The notes below the pieces were generated by a model. That model was not told the DNA's origin, did not search any database, and worked only from the letters and a program-made list of their open reading frames with translations. 64,000 nt of DNA from Leucobacter komagatae (GTDB taxonomy: Bacteria > Actinomycetota > Actinomycetes > Actinomycetales > Microbacteriaceae), in contig NZ_JXSQ01000004.1 of assembly GCF_000834055.1 (NCBI RefSeq), positions 62,001 through 126,000 on the forward strand, in the 5' to 3' direction. A program made the translations under genes and the position numbers. Below, piece by piece: positions 2,477 through 28,960 of this stretch. The first letter of the stretch is position 1; each line of letters begins with the position of its first letter.

Positions 2477-4213
2477 CTAGCCCAACGGTCCCCGCGACAG
2501 CTGCCAGAGCTTCGCGAACGCGCCCTCTGGCTGCGCGAGGAGTTCGTCTGGTGCCCCGCTTTCGGTGATGCGCCCGTCTTCGAGCACGACGATGGTGTCG
2601 GCGCCGCGCACCTGGTCAAGGTGGTGCGCGATGATGATCGCGGTGCGCCCCTCGCTTGCCCGCCGCATCGCGGCGGCGAGCGTTGGGTCCGCGCCTGCCT
2701 GCGAGCCTGCTTCGTCGAGTACGACCACTGGCGGGTCGGCGAGCAGCACGCGCGCGAGGGCGAGTTGTTGCGCCTCGCGGTGGCTGACCGAGGCCGACAG
2801 GGTCGCGTTGAGACCCCCTGGCACCTCAGCGAGGTTGAACCCGACAGCGGAGAGCGCTGCCGTGACTTCGTCGTCGCTCGCTGCGGGGGCGGCGATGCGT
2901 GCGTTTTCGGCGACGGTCCCTGCGAACAGGTGTGTCTCTTGGGCGACGAGCAGTGCGGCTGGGCGGCCAGCGGATCGAGCCAGGTGAGCTGCGACGCCGC
3001 CGATGCGCACCTCACCGGCGAGCGGCTCGTCGAACCCCGCAATGAGGCGCGCGAGCGTGCTCTTGCCTGAGCCTGAGCTGCCGATGAGGGCGACGGTCGC
3101 CCCTGACGGGATAACGAGGTCGACGCCACGGAGCGCGTCACGTGTGGCGCTTGCACCGTAGCGGTAGCGCACGCCGAGCACATCCACGGCACCGTCGGCG
3201 ATCTCGGTGGAGGTGTCGGGTGTTGTGGCTGCCCCGGTCGAGAGCACGACTCCGGTGAGTCGCTGCAGCCCGGAGAGCGCGCGCTGGAGGTCGTCCATAC
3301 TGCCGAGTAGTTCACCGATCGGGTTGAACAGGCGGTGGAAGTACAGCGCCCCTGCGGTGACGGCGCCAACCGAAAGCCCTGCGGTTGCAACGCGAATGAA
3401 TCCGACAGCGAGCACCGCGGCGAGCCCGACGAACTCCGCCCCGTTGAGTCCGGCGCTGAAGATGTTGCGGGCCTTGCCCGCTTCCCGCTGCGTGCGCACC
3501 GCTATTTCGCTCGCCGTGGCGATCGCGTCAAGGTGCTCGTCGGCGGTGCCGTACGCGCGAACGGTATCGGCGCCGGCAACAGCCTCGACGAGTGCCCTCC
3601 CGCGCTCTGCCTCTTCGACGCGGAGCCGGGCGTACAGCGGGCGAGACCGTCGGAGAAAGACGCGGGTGGTGAGTACCTGGATAGGCACGGCGATGAGGGC
3701 GGCAAGTGCGAGCCAGGGGTCGAGCACCGCCATGCCGATGAGGGTGAGCACGATCGTGAACAGGGCGCGAGCGCACATCGGGATCACGCCCGAGATGGCT
3801 TCGGTCACCGACTCGACGTCGTTGGTCACCCGCGAGATGACGTCAGCATCGCCTGCGGCCTCGACGCGCCGCAGTGGGAGCGCGAGGGCCGCCTCGAACA
3901 CGTCTTCGCGGAGTGCGGCAAGGGCGCGCTGCAAGCACCGGACGAGGAGGATGCCGCCTGCCCCCTCGAGCGCGGCCGCTGTGACGCCGGCAGCAGCGAT
4001 GGCTGCGCCGAGCCAGAGGATGTTGACGAACGGCTCGCCCGCAATGACGGCGTCGATGATAGCCCCGAGCAGCGGTGGGATGAGGAGCATCGTTGCGGTT
4101 CCGAGGAGGAGGAGCGCAACCGTCGCGACGAGCAGCCCCCGCTGGCGCCAGAGTAGGCGCATGCCGAGGCTGGCGGCCTCGCGCGTGGTTGAGGTGGGGA
4201 GCAGGTCGTTCAC
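2477..4213 (-). CDS. Half-size ABC transporter, exporter fold (canonical Walker A, degenerate signature)
   Basis: A 578-residue fusion of a type IV (exporter-fold) membrane domain, about residues 20-320, and an ATPase domain, about 340-570. The ATPase has Walker [10 protein letters not shown], a Q-loop (VAQETHLF), Walker B VVVLDEAG and the switch His (IIIAHH). The signature LSGGQ is replaced by SVSHREAQ and the D-loop is also unusual. The upstream half-transporter has the opposite pattern, so the two should form a heterodimer with one working ATP site. GTG 4213 overlaps the stop of the upstream gene by 4 bases (GTGA), which supports this start over the longer frame. The neighbouring siderophore-interacting protein suggests ferric-siderophore transport, as in the exporter-fold importers IrtAB and YbtPQ; the CydDC-like or drug-export roles remain alternatives. 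Confidence 0.85.
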
Positions 4214-5919
4214 TGCGCACCCCCGAGCGGGCAGCACGCCCCGCCGCCGCTGGCACAGCACGTGCGTACTGGCTCGGGGCAGCGCCCGTCGATGACTCGT
4301 TCACACGCTGCGAGCAGCGCTGGGCTTGCCGTGACGACGACGACTGGCCTGCCAAGCTTTCCGAGTGCTTCGGCGACGCGCTGCTCGGTGACCGGGTCGA
4401 GTGCGCTCGTTGGTTCGTCGAGCACGACGACGTCCCCGGGGCTGTGCAGCGCCCTGGCAAGGAGCACGCGCTGCCGTTGCCCGCCCGAGAGGCGTCTGCC
4501 GCCCGCCCCGATCTCAACATCGGCGTCGCCGAGGTGCGCAACGACGTCGCCGAGCGCTGCTGCCGCGAGCGGTCGGTCGCGCAGGCAGCCGTCGCGCGAG
4601 ACATTGGTGCGGAGGGTCCCGGTGAACAGTGCCGCGTCGTGCGGTGGGGCAACGATCCGCCTGGCGACGCATTCGGGGCCAAGGTCGCAGGCGCACGCGC
4701 CCCCAATGCGCAACTCCCCTGGCGCCGGGTCTCGCCGGAATCCGAGTGTTGCTGCGGCCGTCCGCGCCTCGGCGGCGGTGCGCACGCGCACCCCAACGAG
4801 GCCGTCACCGGCGCTGACGGTGAGGGTGTCGCCGCTCGGCGCATCCCATTCGAGGAGCGCCTCGGCTGAGCTCATTCCCTGGATCGCGCTGGGAGTGCCT
4901 GCGGCGGGGCCGCTTCCGGCCGCGAGGTCGTAGTCCTCCTCAAGCAGCTCCCGCAGTCGCACCGCTGAGGCGCGCTTGTGCGCCCAGTTCGCGCCGAACG
5001 TGCCGACGTGTGCGAGCGATCCCTGCAGAAACTGCGCGAGGCCGACGACGGTGACGAGCTGCCCAGGGGTGATGTCGCCGCGCACCGCGAGCCAGCCGGC
5101 AGCGAGCGCCAGCGCTGCGAGGTAGACAACGGAGACCATGGTGCTCACCGACTGGTAGGTGACAAGAAGGCGCGCGGAGGCGATGCCCGCGTCGCGTGAC
5201 GCGGAGCTCGCGACGCGGTATCGCCGCACCATCTCGGCCTGGGCTCCGAGCCCGTGGAGCACGCGGAGACCGCCGAGCGCGTCGGTCGCGACCTCACTTG
5301 CGCGCGCGACGGCGCCCTGCTCGATGGACCCTGCACGCTCGATGGGGCGTGCGAGCCACTGCATGACCACGAGCACGAGCACAGCGCCGACTGCGACGCC
5401 TGCGCCGAGCGGCACGGAAATGACGAGCAGCGCAATGGTCGCTGCGAGTATGGCCGCGAGGGTCGCCGCCTGCTGCGCGATGCTCCACGAGATCCCGGCG
5501 ACACGGCCGGTGTCGCTCGTGGCGATCGAGAGCACCTCACCCGCGTGTCTGTTCGCCCGTACCCCGCGGGGGTGGAGTACGCGCTTGCCCGCGAGCAGCC
5601 TGAGGTCATGCTCCCCGTACCCGTAGACGCTCACCATCGCCAGCGCTGAGCGCTGGTAGCTCAGGGAGAGCACGAGGAACACTGCCCCGAGTACGCCAAG
5701 CCAGAGCATCAAGCCGCCGAGGTCGTGTGGCGCGATCGCGCGGTCGATGACGACACCGATGAGGATCGGAACGGCCGCCTCGCATGCCTGGTGCAGCATA
5801 AACCCGGCCGTTGCCAACGCGAGTTGGCGGCCGCGGCGACCACCGGTGAGCGCGAGCTTGAGCAGGTTGGGCACGCGGGGCGTGCCAGGGCCAGCGGCCG
5901 CGTCGCGGGCTGTGCTCAC
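4210..5919 (-). CDS. Half-size ABC transporter, exporter fold (degenerate Walker A, canonical signature)
   Basis: A 569-residue exporter-fold membrane domain plus ATPase domain. The membrane part spans roughly residues 30-310 with repeated hydrophobic segments. In the ATPase domain the P-loop is lost: the expected place reads [16 protein letters not shown], without GxxGxGK[ST]. The switch His is replaced ([10 protein letters not shown]). The signature LSGGQRQRV and Walker [14 protein letters not shown] are intact. It therefore complements the downstream half-transporter motif by motif. The GTG start overlaps the TAG stop of the siderophore-interacting protein gene by one base (TAGTG) and follows a GGGGA, so translation is probably coupled. 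The C-terminus carries several Cys (CPEP, TCC, ACC), which is odd and could bind metal. Confidence 0.85.
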
Positions 5920-15407: not shown

Positions 15408-15858
15408 CTATCCGCGAGAGGGCATCCATCGTTCCCACCACAGCACGAAGCCACCAAACATGACTGCCAGATAGATGCCCGTCACCGGAATCCCCAACGG
15501 CAGGTCAACACCAAAGGGGTTCTTCGCGATGAAGCCCCCAATCGGATATGCGCCTACCGCACCGGTGATCACGCCGACAACAGCGGCGCGCGTCAACGCC
15601 CCGCCAGCACCCATCGGGAGTTTTCGGGCGAGGAGCCAAGGCAAGATCCCGATGGCACCAAGGACCGCCCCCCATCCCCGCGCACGGCAGGATGAACACC
15701 AGCATCCCCCACGCAACGGTCGCCGCCAATCCGTGACTATCGGTGATTCCCACGATGATCGTCTGCAGTGCCGCAGACAGCCCCGTGACGGCAGCACCGT
15801 ATAGACACAGCCGGACCGCGGCCTGGGCAAACGTTTTTCTGGCCTGACTACTTGGCAT
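15408..15858 (-). pseudogene. Small polytopic membrane protein, frameshifted in a G6 run
   Basis: Two overlapping frames join into one protein of about 150 residues with four hydrophobic segments: MPSSQARKTFAQAAVRLCLY..., LAATVAWGMLVFILPCAG in the first frame, then VLGAIGILPWLLARKLP, AVVGVITGAVGAYPIGGFIA and IPVTGIYLAVMFGGFVLWW in the second. The switch is at plus-strand C6 (15668-15673). Removing one base makes a continuous frame. Start ATG 15858 lies inside the end of the preceding broken gene, as in a coupled pair. The family was not recognised. It may be a true pseudogene or a sequencing error. Confidence 0.6.
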
Positions 15859-16628
15859 CTTCACTGACAACCTTCGAGAAGTTTTTGGCCTGCTGGAGCC
15901 AAGTAAACTCGGCACCCGCAGGAGCCCCCAGTTGCAACGCGGGAATCAGCCTGCTGCGCATCAGCAACTCTTCAGAGCACAAACCAACCGTCTGGCTCCA
16001 CTATCGAGAGCTCGAACACTTCCCCATCGCCGAACCCACGCGGGCTCCCTTCCGCTGGGAAGGGGAAGATCTTGTCCTGATGGGCTTTGAACAAATCCAT
16101 CGAATCTCTCGCACTGTGCCCCGCCCCATTGGGTGTACTAGATGCTCCTTGTCGTAGGTGTAGGAGGGGTGCTGCTCCGCTGTCCGCTCACTGGGCCACT
16201 CACCCGGCGGAACATCCCAGGTAGCAGCGAGCACAGCTCGAAGCGCCACCAGAACCGAACTATCAACCGATTGTCGCCGCTCTGCCAAACTCAACAACCT
16301 GGATGCTGGCCATACGCCTACGCGAAATCTCCCGAATGCGAATTTGCTCTTCGGCAAGATGCGTGATTGCCTCAACCTCATCTGCGTACCGGCGGGGCGT
16401 CCGTGCCGCAGTCTCCGCCGCATCCACTTCTGCTCTCGTCTCGGTTCTTAACGCTTCTCCCCGTGCGGCGGCAGCCGCAGCGGAGAGTCCCGACCATGCG
16501 TCAGAGAAGACCCCCAACACACGTTCAAGTTCCGTCACCCCCGAGTCAAGCTCTCCGGCGTCCCGCTGCGCTGCGCGGCAAGACTGTTTAATGCCCCGGT
16601 CGCGCAAGCTCCGCTTCGTAGGGCGCAT
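15848..16628 (-). pseudogene. Decayed gene with WXG-like helical N-terminus
   Basis: Four protein-like segments in alternating frames can be joined. Segment 1 (16628 to about 16268) is Ala-rich and helical with a WSG turn (VFSDAWSGLSAAAAAARGEA), like WXG100-type domains. Segment 2 continues DSSVLVALRAVLAATWDVPP and TYDKEHLVHPMG. Segment 3 has SMDLFKAHQDKIFPFPAEG and VFELSIVEPDGWF. Segment 4 has CSEELLMRSRLIPAL and ends VVSEDAK at 15848, overlapping the start of the membrane protein gene. At least three frame changes are needed, so this is most likely a degraded gene. G+C is visibly lower than in neighbours. A former type VII-type substrate is my inference; the C-terminal domain is unrecognised. 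Confidence 0.45.
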
Positions 16629-16666
16629 ATATGCACGGCTCTAAGGAGCACTCGGCAGAAACGCAA

Positions 16667-16700: not shown

Positions 16701-16775
16701 TGGCTGGGATACCAGGACTCGAACCTAGAATGACGGTACCAGAAACCGTAGTGTTGCCAATTACACCATATCCCA
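16701..16775 (-). tRNA. tRNA-Gln (anticodon CTG), CCA encoded
   Basis: Read on the minus strand, the acceptor arms are TGGGATA / TATCCCA (7 pairs), followed by G and an encoded CCA. The anticodon stem ACGGT / ACCGT holds the loop TTCTGGT, giving anticodon CTG. The T arm is CTAGG-TTCGAGT-CCTGG. All arms pair, so the gene looks functional. The decayed low-G+C segment at 15.4-16.6 kb begins right behind its terminator, a common setting for tRNA-linked insertions, though no att duplication was found by eye. Confidence 0.95.
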
Positions 16776-23946: not shown

Positions 23947-24206
23947 TGTATAACCCCCGTGGATGAGTGCCCGCGCCAGCCGCGGGCGATTATTAACTCA
24001 TAGTGTATTCCTACAGCACGCCGACCCGTGACGAGCCCCAAACGCTCAAACAGATGCGTTTTCGATATGAAATTGGAGTTTAGCGACGCAAAGGCTCTCT
24101 GCTCGCTTGCCAGGTCGCACGAAACCGCAACGCTTGCCTGTGCTGCCTGAGCCTCAGCGAGCCGATCAGAGTGCAACGGGAGGCGGCTACTCCCCGGGGC
24201 ACTCAC
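23943..24206 (-). CDS. Small open frame coupled to the putative immunity gene (uncertain)
   Basis: An 87-codon frame that starts with GTG overlapping the stop of the membrane protein gene by 4 bases (GTGA) and ends with TGA overlapping the TTG start of the BMP gene. Its first 41 codons align without gaps to the start of a similar 42-codon frame at 27019-27147, sharing DRLAE and VAVS. The second half (RAVGIHYELIIARGWRG) does not look like typical protein and must hold promoter signals for the BMP gene. It may be a real coupled leader-size gene in its first half or simply a duplicated 3' region. Confidence 0.25.
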   Translation of the reverse strand: MSAPGSSRLPLHSDRLAEAQAAQASVAVSCDLASEQRAFASLNSNFISKTHLFERLGLVTGRRAVGIHYELIIARGWRGHSSTGVIH

Positions 24207-24348
24207 GCCGGCGGTGCGTCCAGCTCAACAACACGCTCAAGGGCGGCGAGCGGATCCGCGAGCAGGTGACGATCTTCCGGGTGCGTGCGATAGTACTCGA
24301 TCACCTCGGCCACGATCACCGGGTCAGACCCGAAATAGATCGGGTACA
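24200..24348. repeat. 149-bp tail repeat, copy 1 (3' end of membrane protein gene)
   Basis: Identical to 27141-27289 at 148 of 149 positions in direct orientation, 2941 bp apart. It covers the last about 48 codons of the membrane protein gene at 24203 and its stop. Upstream of it the two genes share only scattered residues, so the boundary is sharp, as expected from recombination or gene conversion. Confidence 0.95.
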
Positions 24349-24979
24349 GCACGAAATTCGCTCCGCTCTCAAGTTCAAGCGACAACACGCTGTTTCTCCG
24401 GCGGTTCAGCAGAACTGGCGAAAGTAAATCGTCCCATTTAAGTTGCACCGCAGAAAGGCCGGTTCGGGAGCGGACCCCCTGCACCTCCACGACGAGACCT
24501 GCAGCAGGCACACCGCGGTGGAGCACAAAGCCGAGCAATCCCAGCCCGACAAGCACAAATCCAACTGGGTTCCCCAGAACTCCGCCGGATGCAGACGTAA
24601 TTTGTCGTGCCCCCGGCAGGAGCCAGGCAATCACGAAAACTAAGGCCCCCGCAGTTATCGCCGATCCCGCGAGAATCCCCCAAAACCCTGCGAATCTGTG
24701 TGACGCAAATGCCAGCGGACCTCTACGCTGAATACGTACTCTCCCATCGATCACCTCCGCCACAATTTGCAGGATCCACACCGTCATCGCGAATACGCCG
24801 ACCGCAAGCATCCCAAATGCGATGCGCGCTTCAGGTTGAGATGACACCCACACTGGTATAAGCATCAGCACTGCCAGGCATACGCCGAAAATCAGCGTGG
24901 CCCACCAGCTTTTCCGGCGTGAGGGAAACTGCGTCTGCTCACCGAGTAGTGGCACTCTGGGTTTCGCATTAACGTACAA
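24203..24979 (-). CDS. Polytopic membrane protein with PH-like C-terminal part; putative immunity protein
   Basis: 258 residues: two pairs of hydrophobic segments (about 25-50, 53-75, 95-120, 135-155) and a C-terminal soluble part of about 100 residues (VEVQGVRSRTGLSAVQLKWD, then a beta-rich stretch and the helix DPVIVAEVIEYYRTHPEDRH) that resembles bacterial PH-domain proteins. The TTG start at 24979 has AGGGGAG 4 bases upstream, inside the end of the preceding gene, and overlaps it by 11 bases. Position directly after a putative membrane-active toxin, plus the presence of a second divergent copy at 27144, suggests immunity. That role is inferred, not shown; the family itself has no known function to me. 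Confidence 0.75.
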   Translation of the reverse strand: MYVNAKPRVPLLGEQTQFPSRRKSWWATLIFGVCLAVLMLIPVWVSSQPEARIAFGMLAVGVFAMTVWILQIVAEVIDGRVRIQRRGPLAFASHRFAGFWGILAGSAITAGALVFVIAWLLPGARQITSASGGVLGNPVGFVLVGLGLLGFVLHRGVPAAGLVVEVQGVRSRTGLSAVQLKWDDLLSPVLLNRRRNSVLSLELESGANFVLYPIYFGSDPVIVAEVIEYYRTHPEDRHLLADPLAALERVVELDAPPA

Positions 24980-26119
24980 TGCGCTCCCCTACAAGATAGT
25001 CAAAGTCCAGGGCATCTACCGCTTCGCGAACATCCAGGGGAACCAATCTTTCCCAACCAAACTTGCTCAGCTCTCCCACCGCGTATCCCGCCGCCCCAAT
25101 CACAACAGCAATACCAACCGGGGGGAGAGCAACAGATAGAGAACCGAGCGCTACCCCTGAAACGATCCCGCCACTCAAAGCACCAACGGCGCCAATCGAC
25201 ACGGACGTCCAAGAACCGCCGTTCGCAATTTCGATGCTTGCTGCAACTATCTCGATCGCTCCTCCACCGGCGCCCAGAAAAAGCTTCCCGGTCTTCATGA
25301 AGCGCACCTGCTCAGCAAGAGCATCGGCCTCCGCCCGAAGCTTTGCGGCATCAGTGGCCTGAGCAGGAATACGCACGGCCCTGTTGCCGGAGCGCCGCCG
25401 CTCAGCCAGCGAATCCCGGGCCACCTGCGCTTCCTTCAATCGTTGTTCGAAGACAGTCAAGTTCTCTGCCCATACTGCCCCTGAAAGAGCGACAGGGAAG
25501 CCTCTAATTGCTTCATTTCCCTTCTTGAGCGTTTCGAACGCCGCGGAAAGCGCGTCGAAGTCCGTCGCGCGCGCAATGAGGGGAAGCATGTGGTCAATGA
25601 TCCAGTCCTCAAGATCGATCCACCAGGCTTCCACCTTCTCGCCGATCCGCTGAAACACTCGACCCGCTTCTGCATATTCGTCACCGGTCATGACGTCTAC
25701 GCATTCCCCGTTCGGGCCGACCGCGTAGGGGTTCGGTGCACCTGGCGCTGCGATGTAGGTTTTCGGCGCCTCGGGCATATCGATGAGGTTGCCATTCACC
25801 AACAAACGCGCGGTCGCTGCTTCGTCCAGATAATCGGCGAAAGTAAGACGCCCACGCTCGATACGGCGCGCGTAAGCACGAAACACTGTTGCAGCGTCGG
25901 CGGCATATACATCTACAGGATCTGCAGCTGCGGCGATCGCGTCAGTGCTGTCGCGAAAGCCTCCCCACTCCGACCTTTCCAAAACTCAATTGACTCAGCT
26001 GAAGTCTTCTTTAACCGCTGCTGCAAGTCATTGCTCGGCACTGAGACCTTGTTATCCAACCAGGTCGCAAGCTCGAATACGCCACTCGGGTCGCCCTCAA
26101 TCGTCACATCGATGCTCAT
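24969..26119 (-). CDS. WXG-type protein with glycine-zipper C-terminus, frameshifted; putative type VII membrane toxin
   Basis: Frame one (ATG 26119) gives MSIDVTIEGDPSG...ESIEFWKGRSGEAF, with a W-K-G turn of WXG type. Frame two continues RDSTDAIAAAADPVDVYAAD to the stop at 24969. One missing T in the run read as AAA at plus 25956-25958 joins them into about 384 residues. Order: WXG helical hairpin (about 1-105), a middle region (NPYAVGPNGECVDVMTG, WWIDLEDWIIDH), coiled coil (about 210-270), then a hydrophobic C-terminus rich in GxxxG spacing (GAVGALSGGIVSGVALGSLS; PPVGIAVVIGAAGYAVGELS). That tail recalls glycine-zipper pore formers such as the LXG toxin TspA. TTG 25982 has no ribosome binding site, so separate translation of frame two is unlikely. 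ATGA overlap with the gene before. Confidence 0.65.
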
Positions 26120-26836: not shown

Positions 26837-26995
26837 CTACTCTGCGTCAGGGATTGGATCCGCACCGCGCCCGTCGAGCGCGTCGATGTAGCGCAGCACG
26901 ATCCCCTCGCGCAGCGCCCACGGCGAGATCGTGAGCGTCGACACGTTAAACACCTTCATCGCGGTGCGCAGCACGACCGCGTTCCCAGAAATGGT
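26837..26995 (-). pseudogene. Remnant: duplicated 3' end of ppx
   Basis: Encodes AVVLRTAMKVFNVSTLTISP and the following residues down to DALDGRGADPIPDAE and stop, matching the C-terminus of the intact ppx gene (28001) almost exactly. Similarity stops abruptly at 26981 where the intact gene continues into its catalytic part. No start or upstream domain is present, so the fragment is not functional. It marks the left border of the inserted cassette. Confidence 0.9.
26865..26981. repeat. 117-bp ppx-tail repeat, copy 1
   Basis: Direct repeat of 28029-28145 with 115 of 117 identical bases (differences in ATCCCC/ATGCCC and GTTAAAC/GTCAAAC). The flanks diverge at once on the 3' plus side. It is the second half of the evidence for cassette duplication at this site. 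Confidence 0.95.
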
Positions 26996-27018: not shown

Positions 27019-27147
27019 TCAACTGCGCTCAAAAGCTACGCACATCCCCCAAATGTCGCGCGAAACCGCAACGCAGGTAAGTGCTGCCCGCTCCTCTGCG
27101 AGTCGATCGGCGGCGCAGCGCAACGGGGCAGCTCCCCCGGCACTCAC
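27019..27147 (-). CDS. Small open frame after the second membrane protein gene (uncertain)
   Basis: 42 codons, GTG start overlapping the preceding stop by 4 bases, reading MSAGGAAPLRCAADRLAEER and on to CVAFERS. It is the counterpart of the first part of the frame at 23943-24206; the two align without gaps over 41 codons with about 19 identical residues. The frame is kept despite many base changes, which hints at selection, but the region could also be only a duplicated untranslated stretch. Confidence 0.25.
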   Translation of the reverse strand: MSAGGAAPLRCAADRLAEERAALTCVAVSRDIWGMCVAFERS

Positions 27148-27289
27148 GCCGTCGGTGCGTCCAGCTCAACAACACGCTCAAGGGCGGCGAGCGGATCCGC
27201 GAGCAGGTGACGATCTTCCGGGTGCGTGCGATAGTACTCGATCACCTCGGCCACGATCACCGGGTCAGACCCGAAATAGATCGGGTACA
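27141..27289. repeat. 149-bp tail repeat, copy 2
   Basis: Partner of 24200-24348 (148/149 identical). It forms the end of the second membrane protein gene and its stop codon. Confidence 0.95.
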
Positions 27290-28000: not shown

Positions 28001-28960
28001 CTAGCTGTCCTCTGTGACAGGGTCGGTGCCGCGCCCGTCGAGCGCGTCGATGTAGCGCAGCACGATGCCCTCGCGCAGCGCCCACGGCGAGATCGTGAGC
28101 GTCGACACGTCAAACACCTTCATCGCGGTGCGCAGCACGACCGCGCCGGCCATGATCTGATAGCCGCGCTCGGGGGTGATGCCGGGCAGGTACTCGCGCA
28201 CCGAGCCAGGCATGTCACGCAGCGTCGGCTCCCACTCGCGCAGGCCCGCGTAGTGCAGCTCCGCGAGATCGCCGGTCGCCGGGTCGGGTGGCCCGCCGAT
28301 GAGCCTGGCGAGCGAGCGGATCGTCTTCGAGGTGCCGACGACACGCTTCGGCTTCGGCCGCCCCTTGAAAAACTCGTTGCGGGCCTGCGTGAACTCGGCT
28401 CGGGCGTGCGCCCGCAGTCGGGAGATTCCCTCCGCGGTCGGCGGATCCTCGGGCAGGTACATGATCGTCGAGCGTCCGGCGCCGAGCGGTAGCGACACCT
28501 GCACGTCGGGATACTCGTCGGCACCCTGGGCGATCTCGAACGAGCCTCCACCGATGTCGAACAGCAGAATCTCGCCTGCCGACCAGCCGAGCCAGCGCCG
28601 CACCGCAAGCATCGTGATCCGTGCTTCATCCTCACCCGAAAGCACATCGAGCCGCAGCCCCGTCTCGCCTTCAATGCGCGCGAGCACCTCCTCACCGTTC
28701 GCTGCCTCACGAATTGCTGAGGTCGCGGTCGCGAGCAGGTCGTCGACACCGATCTCCTGCACGGTCGCTACCGCTTCAGCGATAGCCGCGATGATCCGGG
28801 TGACGCCCTCCTCGGTGATCGCCCCGTCGTCGTCGAGGTACCGCATAAGCCGCAGCGTCGACCGCTGGGAGTGGTAGGGGTTCGGGCTCGCACCGGGGTG
28901 CGCGTCAACCACGAGGAGATGAACAGTATTCGAACCTACATCGATGACTCCGAGTCGCAT
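28001..28960 (-). CDS. ppx: Ppx/GppA family exopolyphosphatase / pppGpp phosphatase
   Basis: 319-residue member of the ASKHA-fold Ppx/GppA phosphatases, which remove phosphate from polyphosphate or pppGpp in the cytosol. The phosphate-1 loop is VIDVGSNTVHLLVVD at the N-terminus and the second loop is LLFDIGGGSFEIAQG near residue 142. Length fits the short, two-domain actinobacterial form without the C-terminal HD part. ATG 28960 is chosen over a TTG two codons earlier. Its 3' end has been duplicated at 26837. It is the outer boundary of the putative toxin/immunity locus and probably not functionally linked to it. Confidence 0.88.
   Translation of the reverse strand: MRLGVIDVGSNTVHLLVVDAHPGASPNPYHSQRSTLRLMRYLDDDGAITEEGVTRIIAAIAEAVATVQEIGVDDLLATATSAIREAANGEEVLARIEGETGLRLDVLSGEDEARITMLAVRRWLGWSAGEILLFDIGGGSFEIAQGADEYPDVQVSLPLGAGRSTIMYLPEDPPTAEGISRLRAHARAEFTQARNEFFKGRPKPKRVVGTSKTIRSLARLIGGPPDPATGDLAELHYAGLREWEPTLRDMPGSVREYLPGITPERGYQIMAGAVVLRTAMKVFDVSTLTISPWALREGIVLRYIDALDGRGTDPVTEDS
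28029..28145. repeat. 117-bp ppx-tail repeat, copy 2 (parent copy)
   Basis: Lies inside the intact ppx gene; partner of 26865-26981 (115/117). The intact gene context shows this is the source copy. Confidence 0.95.

What the first reader, a model, noticed from the sequence alone, without database searches (positions are those of the whole stretch)
15408..16628. Decayed two-gene module next to tRNA-Gln
At least three frame changes in one gene and one in the next leave protein-like segments in alternating frames. The first gene starts with a WSG-type helical hairpin and its end overlaps the start of a four-helix membrane protein, echoing the toxin/membrane-protein layout at 24-26 kb. It lies directly behind the tRNA terminator in a lower-G+C patch. 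It may be a dead relative of the cassette at 24-28 kb.
Basis: partly seen in the sequence, partly recalled or inferred. Interest (0 to 1): 0.5.

Follow-up and report, generated by a model that had tools for sequence, protein, structure and literature searches.

The report
Dead toxin-immunity gene pair
Beside a tRNA gene lies the wreck of a two-gene weapon cassette, probably a secreted antibacterial toxin and its membrane-bound protector; intact relatives exist in the same bacterial family and carry a toxin tip that the protein-family libraries searched do not name.

Summary
On the minus strand, 15411-16636 is a broken two-gene module. Intact copies in Leucobacter sp. Ag1 and in a second genus show the original plan: a small leader gene, a ~350-aa protein (WXG-type hairpin, coiled coil, C-terminal tip), then a multi-pass membrane protein. 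Against both, gene 1 of the window has four frame changes, one stop and two missing stretches (36-44 codons each); gene 2 has one frame change. The same genome holds three more copies: gene 1 is broken in all three, gene 2 is open in two and 5'-shortened in one, the pattern of orphan immunity genes. The tip also ends, or directly follows, RHS proteins in five other genomes, next to small membrane proteins, as in polymorphic toxins. The three genomes with a WXG-headed copy carry the type VII secretion gene eccB; nine others checked do not. Two models of low to middling confidence give the tip a START/Bet v 1-like helix-grip fold. No sequence relation to the 24-28 kb cassette was found, and no tRNA-end duplication in the window. 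Best reading: a dead, PEST-like toxin-immunity cassette. The window copy is ordinary debris; the tip family is the interesting part.

The parts
15848..16636 (-). gene 1 pseudogene: putative WXG-headed secreted toxin; four frame changes, one stop, two missing stretches
16296..16559 (-). gene 1 piece: WSG helical hairpin (intact residues 29-116, 50% identity)
16142..16288 (-). gene 1 piece: end of coiled coil and linker (intact residues 158-206, 53% identity)
15984..16118 (-). gene 1 piece: first part of the tip domain (intact residues 215-259, 53% identity)
15863..15925 (-). gene 1 piece: last helix of the tip domain (intact residues 323-343, 52% identity, E 0.28 on its own)
15680..15858 (-). 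gene 2 pseudogene, first two predicted membrane spans; its start codon overlaps the gene 1 stop by 11 nt
15411..15671 (-). gene 2 pseudogene, last two predicted membrane spans (31% identical to the intact partner, 51% to the own-genome copy on contig C6)
16701..16775 (-). tRNA-Gln (CTG), neighbour; not shown to be part of the module

Best explanation
The region is a dead copy of a toxin-immunity cassette of the polymorphic-toxin kind. In intact relatives a small leader gene is followed by a ~350-aa protein and, overlapping or a few bases on, by a membrane protein of three or four spans. Shown: the homology, the breakage, the intact copies, the second context of the tip at the end of RHS proteins, and the co-occurrence with eccB. 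Inferred: the WXG-type hairpin, perhaps paired with the leader protein, takes gene 1 to the type VII (ESX) secretion machine; the C-terminal tip is the toxic part; from the predicted helix-grip fold and the membrane partner, the tip most likely binds or alters a lipid or lipid-linked substrate at the outer face of the target's membrane; gene 2, in the producer's membrane, blocks it. When the toxin is lost the immunity gene can be kept for a time as an orphan. In the window both have decayed, so this copy should do nothing now.
For: Ordered homologous pieces and shuffle controls. Intact gene 1 + gene 2 in L018 and L046, gene 1 proteins 52% identical; leader proteins 32% identical over 96 aa, E 1.4e-17. 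Tip domain at the C-terminus of RHS/YD-repeat proteins in G287 and G360, of a 239-aa RHS tail in G268, and in short frames downstream of RHS proteins in G191 and G439, abutting or overlapping a small protein with 4, 2, 3, 1 (75-aa fragment) and 4 predicted spans in G287, G360, G268, G191 and G439. EccB above cut-off in 3 of 12 genomes, exactly G000, G016, G259; in the genus 7 of 54 have it, including both with a WXG-headed copy (chance 0.015). The own EccB has no internal stop and lies with EccD/YukD and WXG100 genes. Own genome: three more copies, gene 1 broken in all, gene 2 open in two. Helix-grip fold: two models, best Foldseek E 9.7e-6 and 3.3e-6, VIA Z 12.1, rmsd 3.1 over 133 residues. 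Related biology: PEST cassettes (PMC10654092, passages), membrane immunity for a type VII toxin (PMC7456083, passages), a START-like helix-grip toxin domain (PMC12419801, section 29).
Against: No activity is known for any member; no Pfam or NCBIfam model names the tip or gene 2. The WXG100 match of the intact protein is just under the Pfam cut-off (27.1 against 27.3 bits), far under TIGR03930's (25.9 against 44.85), and absent at E <= 1 in G259. No YxxxD/E motif lies in the first 115 residues of either intact gene 1. Five of the seven eccB-bearing genomes of the genus have no recognisable WXG-headed copy, so the link runs one way and rests on three genomes. The membrane partners of the RHS form are not detectably related to gene 2 (hhalign probability 3.2%). 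Both models have mean pLDDT under 70 and very thin alignments of the same protein, so they are not independent.
Confidence: 0.75

Rival explanations
1. The pair is an ESX-secreted structural or host-interaction protein and a membrane partner, not a toxin and its immunity protein.
For: No known toxin domain in Pfam; helix-grip domains commonly just bind ligands (established knowledge); Leucobacter includes nematode-associated species in which type VII factors were counted among virulence candidates (PMC12573734, passages).
Against: The same tip is swapped onto RHS proteins, again with an adjoining small membrane protein; gene 2 outlives gene 1 in several copies.
Confidence: 0.18
2. Clustered sequencing or assembly errors in an intact gene pair.
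For: The genome is a 62-contig assembly; reads were not available.
Against: Two stretches of 36-44 codons are missing against both intact relatives; three other copies in the same assembly are damaged in other ways.
Confidence: 0.03
3. A dead paralogue of the 24-28 kb cassette.
For: Same general layout; weak WXG100 matches in both.
Against: No sequence or profile similarity.
Confidence: 0.05
4. A remnant of a prophage or island integrated at tRNA-Gln.
For: It abuts the tRNA terminator; another copy of the module in this genome (contig C30) lies about 1 kb from a phage terminase gene.
Against: No repeated tRNA end in the window; no tRNA in the related-module loci scanned. Two relatives with the same tRNA-Gln to acyl-CoA ligase interval hold an unrelated membrane gene there, which shows a variable spot but no integration.
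Confidence: 0.12

Closest known systems
PEST cassettes (phage-encoded ESX-secreted toxins) of Mycobacterium prophages, PMC10654092 (passages seen)
   Same: Small leader gene, large protein with WXG100-like head and variable C-terminal domain, downstream immunity gene; ESX secretion predicted.
   Different: Microbacteriaceae instead of mycobacteria; most copies are not visibly in prophages; tip of predicted helix-grip fold; head homology to PEST1-3 not tested; leader protein has no WxG motif.
LXG/TspA-type type VII toxins with membrane immunity (TspA/TsaI of Staphylococcus aureus, PMC7456083, passages seen)
   Same: Secreted protein with a C-terminal toxic domain next to a polytopic membrane immunity protein.
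   Different: No sequence relation was found or sought; TspA is reported to depolarise membranes with a colicin-like tip, the tip here is predicted to be a helix-grip; TsaI has five predicted spans, gene 2 three or four.
START-like helix-grip toxin domains with Cystatin-like heads, PMC12419801 (section 29 and passages seen)
   Same: A helix-grip domain as the C-terminal toxin domain of a polymorphic toxin, proposed to act on lipids.
   Different: Head is WXG-type or RHS, not Cystatin-like; whether the domain families are related was not tested, as their sequences were not at hand.
RHS polymorphic toxins
   Same: Five other genomes carry this tip at the end of, or just behind, RHS proteins.
   Different: In the window the head is WXG-type and there are no RHS repeats.

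Membership tests
WXG100 / type VII secretion substrate | WXG100 domain above curated cut-off | tested here: inconclusive
   Intact L018 protein 27.1 bits against 27.3 (Pfam) and 25.9 against 44.85 (TIGR03930); window piece 17.5 bits; none at E <= 1 for G259
WXG100 / type VII secretion substrate | W-x-G between two helices | tested here: met
   WSG and WEG at residue 50 in the two intact proteins; WSG in the window, WAG in the C30 copy
WXG100 / type VII secretion substrate | YxxxD/E motif after the hairpin | tested here: not met
   None in the first 115 residues of either intact gene 1; one YALDE in the G259 leader protein. That the motif defines ESX substrates is recalled
WXG100 / type VII secretion substrate | Host encodes the secretion machine | tested here: met
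   EccB in 3 of 3 genomes with a WXG-headed copy, 0 of 9 others checked
PEST cassette | Three genes: small WXG100 protein, toxin with WXG head, immunity protein | tested here: inconclusive
   Three-gene order in both intact loci, but the leader protein has no WXG100 match and no WxG; in the window the leader gene was not found
PEST cassette | Carried by a prophage | tested here: inconclusive
   One own-genome copy lies near a terminase gene; the other loci were not annotated for phage genes
PEST cassette | Toxic without the immunity gene | not testable with these tools
   needs an experiment
Polymorphic toxin | Same C-terminal tip on different heads, with an adjoining partner gene | tested here: met
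   WXG-type head in G000, G016, G259; RHS head in G287, G360, G268
START/SRPBCC helix-grip fold (tip) | Fold by structure comparison | tested here: inconclusive
   Consistent matches, Z up to 12.1 over 133 residues, but models of mean pLDDT 65.8 and 67.7; best sequence support is AHSA1 at E 0.093 in 1 of 8 members
24-28 kb cassette of the window | Sequence or profile similarity of the large and membrane proteins | tested here: not met

The most novel reading that the evidence does not exclude
Microbacteriaceae share an unnamed family of lipid-directed toxin tips with a helix-grip fold, exchanged between type VII (WXG-headed) and RHS proteins and countered by small multi-span membrane proteins; the WXG-headed cassettes travel between duplicated hairpins of the neighbouring genes and die quickly, leaving immunity genes behind. 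The window holds one such corpse.
Probability: 0.25. Interest if true: 0.6.

Novelty: new variant of a known kind. Interest (0 to 1): 0.35.

Why it matters
The window copy itself matters little. The family behind it does somewhat: it joins ESX-type secretion and RHS proteins in one actinobacterial family through a shared tip, gives a small case of toxins decaying while immunity genes persist, and offers an intact, expressible pair (Leucobacter sp. Ag1) to test whether a helix-grip domain can be a membrane-directed antibacterial toxin.

Tried and rejected
Relation to the 24-28 kb cassette: rejected. tRNA-end duplication: none in the window. Direct repeats flanking the window module: none of 20 nt or more, only 7-base matches. 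Plasmids: no match for gene 1 or gene 2. Viral contigs: no relative of the tip. BFVD fold search with the tip model: one match at E <= 0.001, an unnamed protein, TM 0.40-0.43; not followed. Defence library: only weak matches, mostly to the coiled-coil part; rejected. Relation of gene 2 to the RHS-linked membrane partners: not shown.

Rows dropped: the G025 match of gene 2 (E 8.2e-4), because intact gene 2 finds nothing there; the G041 DNA match (E 7.1e-4) and the self-match of the terminator palindrome, six of the eight genomes (E 9.5e-5 to 9.2e-4) as probable chance, leaving G000 and G259, G779 and G730 as probable chance, G721 and G463 as partial. In one search the two 'window piece' rows were translated in wrong frames and are replaced. 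The genus searches saw 54 genomes, the family searches 398 and the class search 394 genomes drawn from larger groups.

Against the hairpin-boundary idea: the three other own-genome copies (C30, C6, C4 at 228 kb) show no flanking repeat, and the G016 repeat also occurs dispersed in other Leucobacter genomes.

Literature: PEST, TspA, lipocone and Leucobacter papers seen as passages, section 29 of PMC12419801 whole; everything else as search listings. The statement that I found no earlier description of a WXG-headed helix-grip toxin rests on searches of an open-access library only; only 10 of 198 papers were listed.

Full report
What is there. The window lies in a 3.67-Mb, 62-contig genome (G000, contig C4) whose nearest named relative met here is Leucobacter sp. 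Ag1. On the minus strand, between tRNA-Gln (16701-16775) and an acyl-CoA ligase gene (name by eye), 15411-16636 contains protein-like pieces in alternating frames. Searching the genus (54 genomes) with two of the pieces found a homologous locus in G016, which is the Leucobacter sp. Ag1 contig. There gene 1 is an open frame of 350 aa and gene 2 one of 147 aa, 3 nt apart. A second intact locus lies in G259, of another genus (gene 1 proteins 52% identical).

The damage. With the intact protein as query, four pieces of gene 1 align in order. A frame-tolerant alignment gives four frame changes, one stop and two missing stretches against either intact relative; gene 2 has one frame change. Shuffles, the opposite strand and other window tiles score far lower. 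G+C is 61.3% against 66.1% for the window; the intact modules are also poorer in G+C than their surroundings (57.8% in G016, 51.7% in G259).

More copies. The same genome has three more: on contig C30 gene 1 is in two frames with its middle missing, and gene 2 is open but has no start codon before a TTG within it; on contig C6 only a gene 1 remnant (E 5.3e-7) beside an open 155-aa gene 2; on contig C4 near 228 kb a gene 1 tail (E 1.4e-11) beside an open 161-aa gene 2. In G009 an open 148-aa gene 2 (E 6.3e-20) follows what may be a 23-residue gene 1 tail (E 0.083, weak). Counting seven loci: gene 1 is intact in 2 of 7, gene 2 in 5 of 7. That is the pattern expected of immunity genes that outlive their toxin; orphan immunity genes are a known theme (listing only).

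What the tip is. The last ~155 residues of gene 1 are a separate module. A profile search of 398 genomes of the family found it in 7, the own genome included. In G287 and G360 it ends RHS/YD-repeat proteins of 2134 and 2175 aa, in G268 a 239-aa RHS tail, and in G191 and G439 it sits in a short frame downstream of an RHS protein. In these five places a small protein abuts or overlaps it, with 4, 2, 3, 1 (a 75-aa fragment, G191) and 4 predicted spans in G287, G360, G268, G191 and G439. These partners are not detectably related to gene 2. One tip on different heads with adjoining partners is what defines polymorphic toxins. In 394 genomes of the class 5 had matches, the own genome included; the other four are partial or weak.

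Secretion. EccB of the type VII machine is present in G000, G016 and G259, the three genomes with a WXG-headed copy, and in none of nine others with an RHS-linked tip, an orphan or no module. In the genus 7 of 54 genomes have EccB above the cut-off; the two carriers of a WXG-headed gene 1 are among them, chance 0.015. Five EccB genomes have no such gene. The own locus also has EccD/YukD and WXG100 genes. The head is WXG-like (W-x-G at residue 50 in both intact proteins), but the profile matches are below the curated cut-offs or absent, and the usual YxxxD/E motif is missing from the head.

Fold. Two AlphaFold2 models (whole protein: mean pLDDT 65.8; tip alone: 67.7, pTM 0.70) both place the tip with START/Bet v 1/AHSA1 helix-grip proteins (Foldseek E from 9.7e-6 and 3.3e-6; VIA Z 12.1, rmsd 3.1, 133 residues). 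The models rest on five and three rows, so this is a lead. Sequence support is slight (AHSA1, E 0.093, in one of eight members). A START-like helix-grip domain has been named as a toxin domain with other heads (PMC12419801).

Mechanism. Shown: homology, breakage, exchange of the tip, co-occurrence with EccB. Inferred: export by the ESX machine, toxicity of the tip, action at the membrane's outer face on a lipid or lipid-linked substrate, protection by gene 2. The dead window copy should have no function.

There is no sequence or profile similarity to the 24-28 kb cassette. No repeat of the tRNA end was found in the window. The interval between the tRNA and the ligase is variable: in G030 and G038, which keep both neighbours, an unrelated membrane gene lies there.

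Boundaries. The G016, G259 and G009 modules are flanked on both sides by direct repeats (104 nt at 94%, 51 nt at 98%, 88 nt at 82%), hairpin-forming most clearly in G259 and G009. Of 200 random intervals 2 had such repeats, one of them overlapping the G016 module itself. The window copy and the three other own-genome copies show none, and the G016 repeat is dispersed in other genomes. This hints at how cassettes move but shows no mechanism.

Verdict. A real but dead member of a PEST-like toxin-immunity family with an unnamed tip: a new variant of a known kind, of modest interest.

Noticed in passing
L018:2318-2421 and 4413-4516; L046:996-1046 and 4053-4103; L022:~2387-2472 and ~3195-3281: Modules in three other genomes are bounded by direct repeats, hairpin-forming most clearly in G259 and G009; the G259 one follows the end of the upstream gene (tryptophanyl-tRNA synthetase by eye). 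2 of 200 control intervals had such repeats, one overlapping the G016 module.
   Followed up: partly
window 26847-26981 and 28011-28145; 24193-24348 and 27134-27289: The 24-28 kb cassette contains duplicated DNA: the 3' end of a Ppx/GppA-like gene (name by eye; 93% over 135 nt, 98% over 117 nt) and the 3' ends of its two membrane-protein genes (98% over 156 nt).
   Followed up: partly
window 25913-26119 and 24969-25982, minus strand: The large gene of the 24-26 kb cassette seems split between two overlapping frames near its WXG-like start (FWKGRSG in the 68-aa frame, by eye), so it may itself be broken.
   Followed up: no
L019:4956-6482: A phage terminase large subunit gene lies about 1 kb from the C30 copy of the module.
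   Followed up: partly
L005:1495-2560 and L006:1618-2742, minus strand: In G038 and G030 the tRNA-Gln/acyl-CoA ligase interval holds an unrelated gene for a predicted membrane protein, so the site is variable.
   Followed up: partly
L062:8815-16995: The type VII locus of the own genome has two EccD-like proteins of different length facing opposite ways around the WXG100 genes.
   Followed up: no
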